Part shown: piece by piece, positions 56,630 to 62,488 of the stretch
Position numbering within the stretch: position 1 is the first letter of the stretch
How the letters are laid out: each line of letters starts with the position of its first letter
Virus record (IMG/VR): IMGVR_UViG_3300021368_000004
Coordinates: 22,747-86,746 of that record
DNA length: 64,000 bases
Direction: 5' to 3' (one strand)
Origin: a virus
Made by a program: the position numbers and the translations under genes
The notes under the pieces: model-generated
The model's database searches: none
What the model saw: the letters and a program-made list of their open reading frames with translations, nothing else
What the model was told of the DNA's origin: nothing

Positions 56630-57481
56630 TTATTTCTTCTTATCGTAACCGTGGAATTTACGGAACTGACGAACACCTTTTCTATCTGACATTGCCATAC
56701 CCGCTGCTCTTTTACGAAGAGTATTCTTTTCTTTATCTATGTCATCACCCTTACCACGTACAATCTTAGCTGTAGCAGAGTTACGAGCTCTATCCATTGA
56801 GTACTTAGCTTTTTGACGATAGCTCATATGATCCTTATCTTTATCAAGAACTTCGTTTTTCTCAGGTGGTTTCTTTTTAAATGTATCTAAACCTTTACCA
56901 GCCATACGATCAGGCTTACTAGACTGAGATGTCGCAATACGTTTCATTGCTCCTTCATTCTTCATATCATCTTTAGATGGTATTCTGAATGGTGCTTTCT
57001 TCAGAGTAACGGCTTTCTTACCTTTTTCAGATGATTGTGCAGACTTTGCAAGTTTCTTCATCAAAGCAGCGTTTTGATTTTCATTCTTAGGTACACAATT
57101 AGGTACCATCTTGCCACCTTTTTTCTTCATTCCAACCTGCTTATGAGTATCCCAACATGCTTCGTTAGGACCTGGATTAGTAGACTTCTTAGCAACTGCT
57201 TTATCTCTTTTAAGCATCTTTGCAATTTTTGCCAGCTTTTCTTTATCATTATCTTTCATTTTAAAGTCTTTAGGCGTAATGATAGTACCTTCTTTATTCA
57301 TCTTCTTTACCTCGTCTGCTTTAGCTGTAGCGGCACCATGTCGGTACTTAATTTGGTGGGGCATTTTATTATGTGGCTTTACGTTTACACGACCATCTTT
57401 ATGTACGTGTATTACTTTATGAGCATCACCTTTATGTGGTCCTCGTGTAACTGTAACAGTATCCCCTACCTTATGTGCCAT
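56630..57481 (-). CDS. Basic head-region protein with KOW motif
   Basis: 283 residues. Residues 4-36 (VGDTVTVTRGPHKGDAHKVI, HVHKDGRVNVKP) form a KOW domain. The block CWDTHKQVGMKKKGGKMVPN is shared by many head proteins of this group. Very Lys-rich overall. Located between DUF6321 and DUF5824-type genes; likely to bind DNA or RNA. Confidence 0.65.
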   Translation of the reverse strand: MAHKVGDTVTVTRGPHKGDAHKVIHVHKDGRVNVKPHNKMPHQIKYRHGAATAKADEVKKMNKEGTIITPKDFKMKDNDKEKLAKIAKMLKRDKAVAKKSTNPGPNEACWDTHKQVGMKKKGGKMVPNCVPKNENQNAALMKKLAKSAQSSEKGKKAVTLKKAPFRIPSKDDMKNEGAMKRIATSQSSKPDRMAGKGLDTFKKKPPEKNEVLDKDKDHMSYRQKAKYSMDRARNSATAKIVRGKGDDIDKEKNTLRKRAAGMAMSDRKGVRQFRKFHGYDKKK

Positions 57482-57484
57482 TTT

Positions 57485-57727
57485 TTATCCCTTTACCTTT
57501 GCCGCAAGGTCTTTATCTGCTCCGCCCCACGTTCCTGATGATTTTGTTGTGAATGAATTAACTCTAGCCATAGCCCACTGTTGTGGAGTAGTGCCCGGTC
57601 TGTGACCTGTTTTCCATGCAGCCATACCTCTATTGTATACCTGCTTTAGTACACTCAATGGCATGCCTGTTTTCTTAGCTTTATTCTTCAAGCCTTCGTT
57701 TTCAGTGATGTACTGGCTAAACTTAAT
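57485..57727 (-). CDS. DUF5824-type basic protein with capsid-targeting-like N-terminus
   Basis: 80 residues from the ATG at 57727 (AAGGGC upstream), chosen because it gives the N-terminus MIKFSQYITEN shared with neighbours and because translation is coupled to the gene before (overlap). The rest, KKTGMPLSVLKQVYNRGMAA then WKTGHRPGTTPQQWAMARVN and TWGGADKDLA, is the DUF5824 family. Predicted cleavage after ITE. Confidence 0.7.
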   Translation of the reverse strand: MKFSQYITENEGLKNKAKKTGMPLSVLKQVYNRGMAAWKTGHRPGTTPQQWAMARVNSFTTKSSGTWGGADKDLAAKVKG

Positions 57728-57941
57728 CATTTTTGCCCTTACGCTTATTGTCTGGATGACCTCTACCGCCATCTGCTTTGTTTGCCCATACTGCTTTACG
57801 CTGTGCAGCTGATACATAACCTTCTTCTTTTTCTTTTTCGGCTTCTTTTTCAGCTTTAGATTTGCCAAATTTATCTTTCATGGGAGTCATTGAGCGTGCA
57901 ATCTCTTGAAGATTCTCCCGTAACTCGAAATAACTTTTCAT
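57723..57941 (-). CDS. Small basic protein with capsid-targeting-like N-terminus
   Basis: 72 residues. N-terminus MKSYFELRENLQEIA parallels its neighbours; the second half YVSAAQRKAVWANKADGGRG then HPDNKRKGKND is a motif shared by marine phage structural proteins. Strongly basic. Confidence 0.65.
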   Translation of the reverse strand: MKSYFELRENLQEIARSMTPMKDKFGKSKAEKEAEKEKEEGYVSAAQRKAVWANKADGGRGHPDNKRKGKND

Positions 57942-59044
57942 TAGTCGTCTCCAAACATTTGTTTAAATTTCTTAGTATGTTTACTAGGTTTAGTTTTTGC
58001 ACCAGCGTCACCAGGAGCTGGCTTATATGATTTAGGATCTCCGTCTGGCATCTTAGCTTGACGCTTGAATTGTGCATCACGCTTTACCTTTGTAGACTTT
58101 TTCAATCCCTTATGATATGCAGCCGGCTGAGAACCGTCACGATCTTTAATTTCTGGATCCTGAGATTCTTTAGGTGCAAATTTCTTTTTTATATCTTTCA
58201 CTGATGCATCGGTACCATAATCGTAAACCTTCTCAACAGCATTTAACCATTGGCGAGTCTTGTTGCCATTTGCTTCAACGATCACATAGTTGGTACCACA
58301 AACTGTAATGGTACCAACTTCATTCGTCTCTTTTATAATGACCTCATCACCCTCACTAAATAGTTGTCCCTCTACATAAGCTTCACGCTCTGGAGAGACT
58401 GAGTCAAATTGTATCATATTTTTAAATTCTTTTGTTTCTTTGAGTCCGAGTCCTTTTCGAACATCATTAAATAATTTCTTAGCATCGTTATTAGACATTG
58501 CATTAGGTAAACCTTGTGCAAATTTAGAGAAATCATTGTCAGTTGCATACTTACGCTGCTTAGTGCCTGATGCACCTTCAGCTCCTTCAGCATCTGGATC
58601 TCTTTGACCAGCCGATACTATCTTAATTCCGTCTTTAAAGTTATAAAATCCATGCCGGCCTTTCTTGCCGTTATACATGTTTAACCTTTTACTATATTCG
58701 TTCACACGATCAGAACCAGCAACCATTACTACGCTGTTAAATCCTTCATCGTATAATGCAGATAGTGCTGCAAAAGGTGTTTTAGCTTTCTTGTTCATCA
58801 TTACCTGACGAGCATGCTTAGGAAACATCTTGCGCACATACTTAATTTTTGAATTGTATGGGATTGGATTTTTCTTATCATTTGATAGTGATAAGAATAC
58901 ACGGTATGGATTGCGTCCTGATGCAGACGCAAGTTTATCTAATAACTTACCATGACCTATAGTGGGAGGATTCATTCTACCGAAGGTAAAATAAACTGTT
59001 TTTTCCTCCTCAACCAGAAATTGAGAAAAACTATTAATAGGCAT
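57941..59044 (-). CDS. Nucleotidylyltransferase-fold protein, probably packaged in the head
   Basis: 367 residues. INSFSQFLVEEEK forms a capsid-targeting-like start; then FGRMNPPTIGHGKLL (T28-x-G-H31) and VVMVAGSDRVNEYSKRL (about 105-121) are the two signature motifs of the cytidylyltransferase/NMN-adenylyltransferase superfamily. Residues about 230-275 (LFSEGDEVIIKETNEVGTIT) look KOW-like, and the last 80 residues are a basic tail. It would bind a nucleotide. Fusion to a basic tail suggests a virion-carried protein. Confidence 0.65.
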   Translation of the reverse strand: MPINSFSQFLVEEEKTVYFTFGRMNPPTIGHGKLLDKLASASGRNPYRVFLSLSNDKKNPIPYNSKIKYVRKMFPKHARQVMMNKKAKTPFAALSALYDEGFNSVVMVAGSDRVNEYSKRLNMYNGKKGRHGFYNFKDGIKIVSAGQRDPDAEGAEGASGTKQRKYATDNDFSKFAQGLPNAMSNNDAKKLFNDVRKGLGLKETKEFKNMIQFDSVSPEREAYVEGQLFSEGDEVIIKETNEVGTITVCGTNYVIVEANGNKTRQWLNAVEKVYDYGTDASVKDIKKKFAPKESQDPEIKDRDGSQPAAYHKGLKKSTKVKRDAQFKRQAKMPDGDPKSYKPAPGDAGAKTKPSKHTKKFKQMFGDD

Positions 59045-59410
59045 TTACTTACCGCGTTTCCTTTGTAACTCTTGTTTACGCTTGTCTTTTCGCATACGTT
59101 TACCTAAATTTGCAATACGACCTGCAATTTTATCTAAACGTTTTTCAAGCGCTCCTTTTTGAGCTGCGGATAACTCGGACTTTGCTCTGCCTTTAGATAT
59201 CTTTTTACCTACATCTTTACGTGCTTGTCTCTGAGCACGACGATCTAGGCGTTTCTTATCGGCGATTTTGAACTTCAATCGCTTCTTGCCAATAGCAAGC
59301 TTAGCTTTGTTCTTCTTCATCATGACTTTTGCCCTACGTCTCTGCGCAGGAGTCCATGCTCGCTCATCTAATTCATCGTAGTTCTCTACGAATTCTCTGA
59401 ATTTTAACAT
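59045..59410 (-). CDS. Lys/Arg-rich protein with capsid-targeting-like N-terminus
   Basis: 121 residues, about 35% Lys+Arg. Starts MLKFREFVENYDELDERAW, then histone-like basic helices (RRRAKVMMKKNKAKLAIGKK and so on). Likely packed with the DNA. No known family. Confidence 0.6.
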   Translation of the reverse strand: MLKFREFVENYDELDERAWTPAQRRRAKVMMKKNKAKLAIGKKRLKFKIADKKRLDRRAQRQARKDVGKKISKGRAKSELSAAQKGALEKRLDKIAGRIANLGKRMRKDKRKQELQRKRGK

Positions 59411-60640
59411 TTAGTTCCGTCCCGGTTTATCCCATCCCTTTAATATATTGGGTGAAAAGTTGTTGTATGAAAATTCCATACGGTCAACGAGTTTCACTGC
59501 ATCACCACCAAGTTTATCAATAGCAACAAAGCCTTCGGCACCTGTTACTTTGAATCCATTCTTTGTCTTCACAAAAGATTTAACTTTCTGTAATGTATTA
59601 AGCTTATTTATAAGTTTTAATTTCGCTACTACAATTAATTTTTGCAGTTCGAACATTTTTATTAGATTTGCCTTGTTTTGTGGCGAAAAGAACGACAGCA
59701 TCTGCTGCTTAGCATCTCTTTGAGACTGCTTGCCCTTCTCTGATTTGCGTTTAGCTTCTTCTTTACCATACTTGAGGCCAATCCATTTGATCAGCATGTC
59801 AGTATGACGTCTTGTATTTTGTACTACCTGTCCTTTACGAACATATTTATTGTTAAATTGTTCTATCATCTGTGCAAGTTTTTGGTTGCCCTGCAGTTCT
59901 CGCAGTGTCGAACCTGCAATCTGATTGAATAATTTACCAGCTTGTGACAATGATTTGTTTACATCGTCAGTTTCTTTCTTAGTCATCAAAAGATTGGTAT
60001 GATCTCGCAACATTGCGTCTTGAGACCATACCGCTTTTGACTTTTTCATTCCTCTAACGTTGACACCGTAACTGGCTCTGAGGGAATCGAAACTATTTCC
60101 ACTATATGACGTGTGCCAGACGATCCCAATGGTAGCGCGTGTGATATCACGAGCAGCATCGTTATCAGCAGGAACAGCATAAACAATGGTGTTTGGATGA
60201 AACGTGACATATTTATTTCCTTTTATGGTTTCTTTCTTTACATCACCAGGGCCAAACAAGAAGTCGCCTTGAACAATCCCTTTAATTCCAAGTTTGGGCA
60301 ATTCACGTAAAGCAGACTTAAGCTTAATAGCAAGGTCGCCACTAGTATCACTATCAACATCAGCAGCGGTCTTATAAATTTTGGGGTTCTTATTGAAGAT
60401 CCCTTTTTTCGCAACGAAGAATACTCCGTCCGAAGGATCAGTACCAGCAAAAATAGCAGGGGCACCATCCCACTTAACAGATACGTTACCATCTTGCTCA
60501 CCTTTCAACATATCGCGTAAAGATCGTAATGCATTAATTGCTTGTCGAGTACCCTCAACTCCACCATAGAGAATCTTATCCTCTATGTGTGTCATGTGAG
60601 TATTCTTTTGCTCGGTTAATGTTTCTTTAAACGATATCAT
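59411..60640 (-). CDS. DUF6267 protein with a ligase-type KxDG motif
   Basis: 409 residues. N-terminus MISFKETLTEQKNTHM is capsid-targeting-like. VKWDGAPAIF (K56-W-D-G59) matches motif I of covalent nucleotidyltransferases (DNA/RNA ligases, mRNA capping enzymes); DGVFFVAKKG (71-80) resembles motif III, and IVQGDFLF (122-129) motif IV. Family is DUF6267 in marine T4-like phages, with no known activity. The C-terminal half is helical and basic. First gene of the block, with its own TGTACA promoter and AGGG ribosome-binding site. Confidence 0.65.
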   Translation of the reverse strand: MISFKETLTEQKNTHMTHIEDKILYGGVEGTRQAINALRSLRDMLKGEQDGNVSVKWDGAPAIFAGTDPSDGVFFVAKKGIFNKNPKIYKTAADVDSDTSGDLAIKLKSALRELPKLGIKGIVQGDFLFGPGDVKKETIKGNKYVTFHPNTIVYAVPADNDAARDITRATIGIVWHTSYSGNSFDSLRASYGVNVRGMKKSKAVWSQDAMLRDHTNLLMTKKETDDVNKSLSQAGKLFNQIAGSTLRELQGNQKLAQMIEQFNNKYVRKGQVVQNTRRHTDMLIKWIGLKYGKEEAKRKSEKGKQSQRDAKQQMLSFFSPQNKANLIKMFELQKLIVVAKLKLINKLNTLQKVKSFVKTKNGFKVTGAEGFVAIDKLGGDAVKLVDRMEFSYNNFSPNILKGWDKPGRN

Positions 60641-60699: not shown

Positions 60700-60921
60700 T
60701 TAATGATTATCCCAATAAGATTTACTTATCTCACCACGGTTTGCATCATTTGCATCACCTGTTTTACGCACTTGTACATAAACAGACGTTGCGCCTATTG
60801 TACGAACACCATTAGATGATAATGCCCATAGTTTTCTTTGCTGTGGTAAACCTGCACCAGGATCTGCTGGTGCATTCTGATATTCCCATCCACTCAGATT
60901 AGGTATAGCTACCCATGCCAT
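60700..60921 (-). CDS. Small virion-type protein (73 residues), unknown
   Basis: MAWVAIPNLSGWEYQNAPAD with a GGAG ribosome-binding site; the N-terminal WVAIPN.. and ..P.DPGAG block is seen in short structural proteins of marine phages. Beta-rich. Overlaps the nuclease gene stop (TAATG). Confidence 0.6.
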   Translation of the reverse strand: MAWVAIPNLSGWEYQNAPADPGAGLPQQRKLWALSSNGVRTIGATSVYVQVRKTGDANDANRGEISKSYWDNH

Positions 60922-61418
60922 TAGTCTGGTTCTCCCATTAATATGTCATATTCATTCTGATCTACAACACCTTCGCGCAATAGCTTTTCACGATTTGCCA
61001 TATGCTTCATTTGAATCTCTTCTTTTGATCCACCGAAGTAAGCCACTGCATGGCCTTCTTCAATCATAATACTTGTTAAGCGTCTTATTTCATATGAATT
61101 GTCTTTGTTTTTATATTCTATATCGAAATCGCCAAGGATACGGCCGAACTTGCCTTTCATATCCTCACCTTTTTTATTTTCTTCTGTAATAAGCTTTACA
61201 TGTTCGCTTTTAAATAGTTCTTTGACTCTTGCCTTTGCAGCTTCGCCAAATAGATCTTCTATTTTATCTCTTGTTCGTGACTCGGGTGTGTCAATACCCA
61301 TGATACGCACTCTTTCATCATGTAACCATATACCAAATCCTAAATCAATATCAACATCTACCGTATCACCGTCAACGACCTTAATTAATTTTACGTCGTA
61401 TTTGTTTTCGGTTGTCAT
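60921..61418 (-). CDS. Thermonuclease-like (SNase) protein
   Basis: 165 residues. KVVDGDTVDVDIDLGFGIWL, then ERVRIMGIDTPESRTRDK and KGKFGRILGDF, match the staphylococcal nuclease fold and its catalytic Arg/Glu/Arg set (E in TPES, R in GRILG). Cuts DNA and RNA with calcium. No signal peptide is seen. AGGAAAAA ribosome-binding site. Confidence 0.85.
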   Translation of the reverse strand: MTTENKYDVKLIKVVDGDTVDVDIDLGFGIWLHDERVRIMGIDTPESRTRDKIEDLFGEAAKARVKELFKSEHVKLITEENKKGEDMKGKFGRILGDFDIEYKNKDNSYEIRRLTSIMIEEGHAVAYFGGSKEEIQMKHMANREKLLREGVVDQNEYDILMGEPD

Positions 61419-61423
61419 TTTTC

Positions 61424-62488
61424 CTACCTGTATTTAAAATCACACATGAGTCGAGAAGGATAACCATCTTTACCTTGTGTATCTCTGAGATTTAATTTAA
61501 AAATATATGTCGGAGATGCCATCTCAATGTCGATACGTTTACCTTTACCGCCTTTACCACCATAATAAATCTTTGGTGCCCCAACTTGAGCAGCCTTCTT
61601 CATAGCTGCTTTACTCATTTCTTTTGATAGTATCCTACCAGTTAGTTTGTGTATAATATGATAATTAAAACCAATACCAGACTGCAATAAGTGTTGCAGT
61701 GCTCTGCGATCGTAACGTGGTCTATTGTCTACTGAACCTTTATGTTCGCCATTAAAGACTTCACAAAATTTCATTTCATCAATACCAAACATTTTTAATA
61801 ATTTTTTACCATCACGATTTCTAATATTAGAATTTTGAATATCATTTTTAGTTAATATTGTTTTTACGCCTACATTAAAGAATGTAGTTGTTCCACCAAG
61901 CTTAAGTGAAAGAAATACTTTTTTCTTACCTGGTTCTAAGTTTAATGTAATATCTGTAACAGATGCGCCTACATCAAATCCACTACCTTTTGGATTAGTC
62001 AATTGTATTCTAGGCGAAAAAACTAATGGTCTACGTGTATTTTCTCCACCTACTACATCTACTGTCAAATCTTTATAGTTTGATATATCGTACGTGTCAT
62101 TTAAATGCTTAATAGCATTTAACATATTTTTATCATTTACATCTTCACCTGACCACCATGCTCGCATTGCATCAGCAAATTGTGGTTCAAATAAATTACC
62201 TCGGTTATTTGCACCACGATTACCTGACGATCCATTACCAAATTTCATTTTAAGTGTAGATACACCAGCTTTTGATTTAATTTCAGTAATAGACATATCA
62301 TCTTGTATTGTTCTAGATATGTTTACATCTCTAGGTTTCTTTAAATCAAAGTTTATAGGTGTCTTATCACGTCTTTTTAATAGTGATAATAGATTCTTTG
62401 CATCGCTAATTGCTTCGGCAGAAAATCCTGCTTTTGACAATGTAGTTTCGATTTCAGGTAAATCTTTAGGAAAAAAGGTATATGCCAT
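61424..62488 (-). CDS. Probable restriction-endonuclease-like protein, unknown
   Basis: 354 residues. ANNRGNLFEPQFADAMRAWW is followed by KKKVFLSLKLGGTTTFFNVG, a pattern (glutamate-containing helix, then a strand with S-L-K) often seen in PD-(D/E)XK-like nucleases, although the motif is not canonical. RGRA..RPRYDRRALQHLL near 260 is basic. Conserved in marine T4-like phages. A late octamer lies 22 bases upstream. Confidence 0.55.
   Translation of the reverse strand: MAYTFFPKDLPEIETTLSKAGFSAEAISDAKNLLSLLKRRDKTPINFDLKKPRDVNISRTIQDDMSITEIKSKAGVSTLKMKFGNGSSGNRGANNRGNLFEPQFADAMRAWWSGEDVNDKNMLNAIKHLNDTYDISNYKDLTVDVVGGENTRRPLVFSPRIQLTNPKGSGFDVGASVTDITLNLEPGKKKVFLSLKLGGTTTFFNVGVKTILTKNDIQNSNIRNRDGKKLLKMFGIDEMKFCEVFNGEHKGSVDNRPRYDRRALQHLLQSGIGFNYHIIHKLTGRILSKEMSKAAMKKAAQVGAPKIYYGGKGGKGKRIDIEMASPTYIFKLNLRDTQGKDGYPSRLMCDFKYR

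What the first reader, a model, noticed from the sequence alone, without database searches (positions are those of the whole stretch)
57485..60640. Five adjacent genes share a capsid-targeting-like N-terminus: candidate virion-packaged protein cassette
The starts MIKFSQYITEN, MKSYFELREN, (MP)INSFSQFLVEE, MLKFREFVEN and MISFKETLTEQ follow one pattern: Met-x-x-[FY]-x-x-[FYL]-[ILV]-x-Glu, then a new segment (one residue shorter in MKSYFELRE). T4 internal proteins and Alt carry a capsid-targeting sequence of this kind, cut after Glu by the gp21 protease. Two of the five are enzyme-like (nucleotidylyltransferase fold; ligase-type KxDG), the others are basic. This suggests a set of proteins packaged with the genome and injected, with possible enzymatic effects in the host.
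Basis: partly seen in the sequence, partly recalled or inferred. Interest (0 to 1): 0.85.

Follow-up and report, generated by a model that had tools for sequence, protein, structure and literature searches.

The report
Head-packaging tags on marine phage genes
Five neighbouring genes of a T4-like marine phage begin with variants of the short tag that T4 uses to load proteins into its head, and published particle analyses of related phages already find several tagged relatives inside the particle, so this cassette probably makes proteins that are carried into the host together with the DNA.

Summary
Chance is still excluded: about one loose match is expected in the whole 64 kb, and all five consecutive genes match. 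The best evidence is comparative. Orthologues keep the tag (DUF6267 33 of 42, cytidyltransferase 35 of 46, DUF5824 half 26 of 36 distinct N-termini), and the same tag sits on at least ten unrelated proteins in relatives. The tag matches T4 IPII/IPIII (MKTYQEFIAEA) at residues 4, 7, 8 and 10, which govern targeting and cutting in T4. Its end resembles the capsid protein cut site of relatives (FLTE, FLSE, LLTE). gp21 protease is present in 7 of 8 related records. In phage S-CREM2 the only three strict tag bearers found in 135 kb (SAM hydrolase, kinase, cytidylyltransferase) are all virion proteins by published mass spectrometry. In S-SCSM1 the syntenic block of five genes is all virion protein. 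Not shown: cleavage, injection, cargo activity, or gp21 in this incomplete record. This is a new variant of the T4 capsid-targeting system.

The parts
59411..60640 (-). Gene 1: DUF6267 protein, 409 aa, ligase/capping-type nucleotidyltransferase-like by motif (KWDG, GDF, EGFV, VKLVDR); tag MISFKETLTE at 60640-60611
   Evidence: Pfam PF19782 E=2e-102, phrog_455; K56, D58, G59, D126, E369, G370, K383 at least 90% kept in 25 diverse members
59045..59410 (-). Gene 2: basic Lys/Arg-rich protein, 121 aa; short tag form MLKFREFVE at 59410-59384
   Evidence: C48C1 orthologue begins MLSFKQFVSEV; tag not generally conserved
57941..59044 (-). Gene 3: cytidyltransferase/NMNAT-like nucleotidyltransferase, 367 aa, with first half of DUF5824 at its C-terminus; tag MPINSFSQFLVE at 59044-59009
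   Evidence: phrog_3041 E=6e-67, phrog_395 E=2e-57; GRMNPPTIGH motif kept; relatives found in virions of S-SM1, S-CREM2, S-SCSM1
57723..57941 (-). Gene 4: 72 aa protein; Glu-9 tag MKSYFELRE at 57941-57915
   Evidence: the same MK[ST]YFELRE[NSG]LQE stands before different bodies of 73, 108 and 188-195 aa in relatives
57485..57730 (-). Gene 5: second half of DUF5824, 81 aa; tag MIKFSQYITE at 57730-57701
   Evidence: PF19141 E=3e-20, profile 56-117; Glu-10 tag in 26/36 distinct orthologue N-termini
61427..62488 (-). Associated: gene of the variable slot upstream of DUF6267, 354 aa, untagged here; in relatives the slot holds unrelated proteins, several tagged
   Evidence: phrog_8438 E=4e-75; slot families; S-SCSM1 slot protein ORF90 (another family, phrog_1462) is a virion protein
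60921..61418 (-). Associated: staphylococcal-nuclease homologue, 165 aa, no tag
   Evidence: PF00565 E=1.4e-10, phrog_452
56630..57481 (-). Associated: Lys-rich KOW-like protein, 283 aa; phrog_38880 match shared with S-SCSM1 ORF92, a virion protein

Best explanation
The five genes form a cassette of proteins carried in the phage head. Each N-terminus is a 9-12 residue capsid-targeting sequence of the T4 internal-protein type. During prohead assembly it docks the protein in the scaffold core; the gp21-type protease then cuts after the Glu; the mature proteins stay with the packaged DNA and enter the host with it. The cargo includes two nucleotidyltransferase-type proteins (cytidyltransferase/NMNAT-like, and a ligase/capping-like DUF6267) and small basic or Lys-rich proteins. 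Most likely they act in the first minutes, on nucleic-acid ends, NAD-type cofactors or host defence. Shown: shared conserved tag on unrelated proteins, match to T4 and to capsid cut sites, gp21 in relatives, virion presence of tagged relatives. Inferred: targeting, cleavage and injection here. Speculative: the cargo's task.
For: T4 control: IPII/IPIII MKTYQEFIAEA; residues 4 and 7 govern targeting, 8 and 10 processing, gp21 cuts L/I-x-E (PMC9026906). Phage C48C1: in 156 kb (1,026 starts) the strict form hits six genes, five of them in one 11 kb cassette (expected in that 41 kb locus 0.08), the sixth uvsW; a Glu-9 form (GTG start) also begins a small ORF just before gp21. 80 related loci: loose pattern 198 hits at + strand ATGs, 1 on the - strand, on more than ten unrelated proteins. 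Orthologue conservation. S-CREM2: strict hits in 135 kb are exactly SAM hydrolase MKDFDSFLEE, kinase VKRFDAFLTE and cytidylyltransferase MKNFSSFLTEA, all in the virion table; Cas9-like gp12 carries LRFASFMAEA at residue 17. S-SM1 virion protein GC190 starts MKKFSAFLNEA. S-SCSM1 NMNAT starts MKSFLQFLKEA and ORF89-93 are all virion proteins. S-CRM01 kinase, cited as a virion protein in PMC10665884, starts MISFDQFLSE. gp21 and capsid cut sites.
Against: No measured N-terminus after the Glu. The window's record lacks the head genes. Two of five window tags are the Glu-9 form and one lacks the aromatic residue 7; the basic gene's tag is poorly conserved. P1' here is Asn/Glu/Gln, not the Ala of T4 IPII/III. 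Some cassette virion proteins in S-SCSM1 (ORF89, 90, 92, 93) have no such tag, so the tag is not the only route. Untagged cytidyltransferases exist (HTVC008M, P-HM1, jumbo phages).
Confidence: 0.85

Rival explanations
1. The tag is a docking peptide for some other partner (replication complex, membrane, host protein), and the proteins seen in virion preparations are carry-over of abundant proteins.
For: The S-CREM2 authors themselves raise carry-over (PMC10665884); several S-SCSM1 cassette virion proteins lack the tag.
Against: Match to T4 at the functional residues and to the capsid cut site; all strict-tag proteins found in S-CREM2 are in particles while its untagged DUF6267 protein gp87 is not listed; several separate cyanophage studies report the cytidyltransferase/NMNAT (PMC3037559, PMC10665884, PMC9602691, and S-CBWM1 as cited there).
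Confidence: 0.08
2. The shared N-terminus is a leftover of common descent or chance in AT-rich genes.
Against: Shuffling expectation of about one loose match per 64 kb and clustering in one cassette; tag kept while bodies change; the proteins fall in different families.
Confidence: 0.03
3. The proteins are prohead-core or scaffold components that help build the head and are degraded or lost, with no role in the host.
For: Basic and Lys-rich members; T4 core proteins gp22, gp67, gp68 are also cut by gp21 (PMC9026906); a Glu-9 tag sits next to gp21 in C48C1.
Against: Cargo keeps catalytic motifs; mature particles of relatives still contain it; the upstream slot varies like injected effectors.
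Confidence: 0.12

Closest known systems
T4 internal proteins IPI, IPII, IPIII and Alt with their capsid-targeting sequence and gp21 protease
   Same: 10-residue N-terminal tag with aromatic residues at 4 and 7, aliphatic at 8, Glu at 10; tag constant while bodies differ; gp21 and a like capsid cut site in relatives
   Different: Tags here vary more and include a 9-residue form; cargo includes nucleotidyltransferase-type proteins in a conserved operon; P1' is often not Ala; the family searches showed no IP or Alt relative
Virion-associated cytidylyltransferase/NMNAT, kinase and SAM hydrolase of cyanophages S-SM1, S-CREM2, S-SCSM1 (PMC3037559, PMC10665884, PMC9602691)
   Same: Homologous cytidyltransferase and syntenic cassette; tagged members are in particles
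   Different: In the passages read, those papers report presence and propose no targeting signal; here the enzyme is split into separately tagged pieces with a tagged DUF6267 partner
Ejection proteins and prohead propeptides of giant phages (SPN3US, phiKZ; PMC5694885)
   Same: Propeptide cut after Glu by a gp21-like protease, proteins packaged and ejected
   Different: Most propeptides there exceed 100 residues; here about 10

Membership tests
T4-type capsid-targeting sequence | Tag within the first 10 or so residues, key residues 4 and 7 (targeting), 8 and 10 (processing) | tested here: met
   Met strictly by gene 5 and by gene 3 with offset; genes 1, 2, 4 are variants; met strictly by most orthologues of genes 1, 3, 5
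T4-type capsid-targeting sequence | Same tag on otherwise unrelated proteins of one phage | tested here: met
T4-type capsid-targeting sequence | gp21-family protease encoded by the same phage | tested here: inconclusive
   None in the 86.7 kb record, which also lacks gp20/22/23; present in 7 of 8 related records
T4-type capsid-targeting sequence | Tag end resembles the protease site of the major capsid protein | tested here: met
   In relatives: FLSE/AP, ALNE/AA, MLSE/AP, FLTE/TG, LLTE/AP; T4 FLTE/AE; sites inferred by comparison with T4
T4-type capsid-targeting sequence | Tagged protein present in mature virions | tested here: met
   For relatives only, from published proteomics: S-SM1, S-CREM2, S-SCSM1
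T4-type capsid-targeting sequence | Tag removed after the Glu | not testable with these tools
   Needs N-terminal peptides from purified particles
T4-type capsid-targeting sequence | Cargo enters the host with the DNA | not testable with these tools
   Inferred only
Cytidyltransferase/NMNAT-like nucleotidyltransferase (gene 3) | (T/H)xGH motif and SxSKxR/SGTKxR-type second motif | tested here: met
   GRMNPPTIGH and GASGTKQRK in the window; G30, H31, S159, R164 invariant in 33 sequences; phrog_3041, phrog_395; Pfam PF01467 only 16.9 bits, below its 21-bit cut-off
Ligase/capping-type covalent nucleotidyltransferase (gene 1) | KxDG, acidic motif III, EGxV motif IV, Lys in motif V | tested here: met
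   K56-D58-G59, D126, E369-G370-V372, K383 kept in most of 25 members
Ligase/capping-type covalent nucleotidyltransferase (gene 1) | Detectable profile or fold similarity to a known ligase | tested here: inconclusive
   No ligase among PDB sequence matches; low-confidence model (pLDDT 66) and no fold match; hhalign to T4 RnlB aligns only 20 columns at the EGYV motif, probability 0.2%

The most novel reading that the evidence does not exclude
Kyanoviridae and related marine and freshwater T4-like phages use a T4-style N-terminal tag as a general loading system for a changeable set of enzymes (nucleotidyltransferases, kinases, SAM hydrolase, a Cas9-like nuclease, unknown slot proteins) that are cut by gp21 and injected, so that injected proteins can be predicted from sequence in hundreds of phages.
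Probability: 0.65. Interest if true: 0.8.

Novelty: new variant of a known kind. Interest (0 to 1): 0.66.

Why it matters
It offers a signal-based rule for which proteins of abundant marine T4-like phages travel inside the head. It would explain why nucleotidyltransferases, kinases and a SAM hydrolase turn up in cyanophage virion proteomes, where the authors could not exclude carry-over. It would let one predict injected proteins in hundreds of genomes (552-560 phage records hold the cytidyltransferase), and it points to a variable slot as a source of new counter-defence or takeover proteins.

Tried and rejected
Search for gp21 and gp23 in the window's own record: none, but the record is a fragment and the control genomes did not ring, so not evidence of absence. 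DUF6267 as a ligase by structure: model too poor, Foldseek and hhalign uninformative; kept as a motif-level inference. The PDB hit of the DUF6267 profile to gamma-SNAP (E=1e-4) lies in a helical stretch and is taken as spurious. PD-(D/E)xK nuclease reading of the slot protein 61427-62488: the confident model (pLDDT 87.7) has no match in solved structures, so not claimed. Pfam matches Rab3-GAP, Dockerin, TerB and the like are below cut-off and ignored. No paper was found naming DUF6267 or DUF5824. Only one paper held both 'capsid targeting sequence' and 'cyanophage', a T4 review; subscription papers are not in the library, so an earlier description cannot be excluded. Supplementary proteomics tables (S-SM1 Table S8) could not be read. 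My Glu-9 pattern also picks up an ordinary conserved domain (M.FDELNEDN...), so Glu-9 hits alone are weak evidence.
Full report
WHAT IS THERE. The window is part of an 86,746-base virus record that encodes T4-like baseplate genes, gp4, gp32 and ribonucleotide reductase, but no gp20-gp23. The nearest named phage by the cytidyltransferase is Phage C48C1, Kyanoviridae (57.8% identity), then Melnitz, Pelagibacter phage HTVC008M and many cyanophages; 554 phage records match. The five genes run head to tail on the minus strand at 60640-57485: DUF6267 protein, basic protein, cytidyltransferase, a 72-aa protein and the second half of DUF5824. PHROG profiles show the same domains fused elsewhere (phrog_455 holds DUF6267 plus nucleotidyltransferase; phrog_3041 holds nucleotidyltransferase plus DUF5824), and the cytidyltransferase and DUF5824 are indeed fused in HTVC008M and Melnitz.

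IS THE MOTIF REAL. Patterns wide enough for all five are expected about once by chance in the whole window, and the five genes are consecutive. The independent test is in relatives. In 80 related contigs the loose pattern occurs 198 times at ATGs of the coding strand and once on the other strand (more ATGs were tested on the coding strand, 6,774 against 988). Distinct orthologue N-termini with the Glu-10 form: DUF6267 33 of 42, cytidyltransferase 35 of 46, DUF5824 half 26 of 36, basic protein 2 of 44 plus 8 Glu-9. The tag also begins unrelated proteins, for example MLRFRTFLLEKD, MKRFSTFMAEN, MIKFKNYILEE, MQGFKTFLSEA, MQRFVDFVNEG, MEKFSKFIAEK and MLSFKSFMEEK. MK[ST]YFELRE[NSG]LQE stands before different bodies. 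In the complete genome of C48C1 five of the six strict hits lie within 11 kb around the cytidyltransferase; the annotators' start for that gene misses the tag.

WHAT IT MATCHES. T4 IPII and IPIII begin MKTYQEFIAEA. In T4, residues 4 and 7 of this tag govern capsid targeting, 8 and 10 govern processing, and gp21 cuts after L/I-x-E (PMC9026906). The T4 internal proteins are described as highly diverse proteins with only the tag conserved (PMC3012670). The marine tags have the same four positions; the cyanophage versions are closest: MKKFSAFLNEA (S-SM1), MKKFSAFLSEA (syn9), MKKFSDFLTEA (S-SSM6b), MKSFFQFLSEA (S-SM2). Capsid proteins of relatives carry FLSE/AP, ALNE/AA, MLSE/AP, FLTE/TG and LLTE/AP where T4 has FLTE/AE (positions by comparison, not measured). 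gp21 is found in 7 of 8 related records that hold the cassette or its slot gene.

INDEPENDENT EXPERIMENTAL DATA. S-CREM2 (PMC10665884, Table 3): I scanned 135 kb of its 175 kb. Strict tag hits were exactly SAM hydrolase gp6, kinase gp14 and cytidylyltransferase gp154, against 0.3 expected, and all three are in the virion table. If 52 of 221 proteins are virion proteins, three of three has a chance of about 0.012 (my arithmetic). The Cas9-like virion protein gp12 carries LRFASFMAEA starting at residue 17, and virion protein gp13 starts MKDLHSFLTE; these two were noticed after the fact. The S-CREM2 DUF6267 protein has no tag and is not in the table. A word search of that paper found no mention of a capsid-targeting or N-terminal signal. 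S-SCSM1 (PMC9602691): its NMNAT is a virion protein starting MKSFLQFLKEA, and the syntenic genes ORF89-93 are all flagged virion protein; ORF90 belongs to the slot family phrog_1462, and ORF92 shares phrog_38880 with window gene 56630-57481. S-SM1: the cytidyltransferase GC190 was detected in virions, as was gp21 (PMC3037559), and SSM1_190, annotated GC 190, starts with the tag. These data support packaging of the family; they do not show cutting. Untagged S-SCSM1 members show that the tag is not the only way in.

WHAT THE CARGO MAY DO. The cytidyltransferase keeps GRxNPPTxGH and the second S-x-S-K/SGTK motif, so it is probably an active nucleotidyltransferase; other authors read it as NMNAT-like, which I did not test. 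DUF6267 keeps KWDG, an acidic motif III, EGxV and a motif-V-like Lys, as covalent ligases and capping enzymes do (established knowledge of that superfamily), but no profile or fold method confirmed this. A role on nucleic-acid ends, on NAD metabolism or against host defence in the first minutes is inference.

VERDICT. What works like the T4 capsid-targeting system here is very probably that system, carried by a divergent branch of the T4 superfamily and loaded with a conserved set of enzyme-like proteins plus a changeable slot. Membership is held back only by the untestable features (cleavage, injection) and by the missing part of this genome.

Noticed in passing
window 61427-62488; L005-L084 upstream of DUF6267: The gene just upstream of DUF6267 is a variable slot: about twelve groups without BLAST similarity to each other in relatives, several tagged. 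The window's version (354 aa) gives a confident model (pLDDT 87.7) without a match in solved structures.
   Followed up: partly
L088:20257, L091:4764, L093:4728, L096:4701, L098 gp12 and gp14, L181 g128: Behind the tag, cyanophage cytidyltransferases, a kinase, a Cas9-like protein and S-CRM01 g128 share a module of about 35 residues (LGL..dGhG.w.D..gkvva.t..GeL), possibly a second packaging element.
   Followed up: partly
window 57485-59044; L004:14968, L065:5716, L081:5992, L090:7001: DUF5824 is split between the end of the cytidyltransferase and a separate tagged gene; where it is fused, an Ile/Leu-x-Glu often lies near the joint, and L081 keeps a tag-like KAFQDFITD inside, as if a cut replaced the gene break.
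   Followed up: partly
L085:14434-14631 (C48C1): A small ORF with a GTG start between the portal region and gp21 begins MRTFKELREA, the Glu-9 tag form, in the head module itself.
   Followed up: no
L085:19419 (C48C1 uvsW helicase): The UvsW-type helicase begins MKDYSHFMVEA, a strict tag match outside the cassette; chance or a packaged helicase.
   Followed up: no
L148:4114-5079 and S-CREM2 gp156 (L099:14013-14726): A tagged protein with a polymerase-beta-type nucleotidyltransferase signature (GSVGKKPMSGDIDLGID); the S-CREM2 virion protein gp156 has a similar one (TGGNANYNYTPYSDIDL) but no tag.
   Followed up: no
window 60921-61418: A staphylococcal-nuclease homologue sits inside the cassette between the slot gene and DUF6267, without a tag.
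   Followed up: no
C48C1 cytidyltransferase, L003:20064 annotated start: The deposited start lies 22 codons downstream of the GTG that gives the tag MIKNFSQYLLEEE, so annotations of this family may hide tags.
   Followed up: yes
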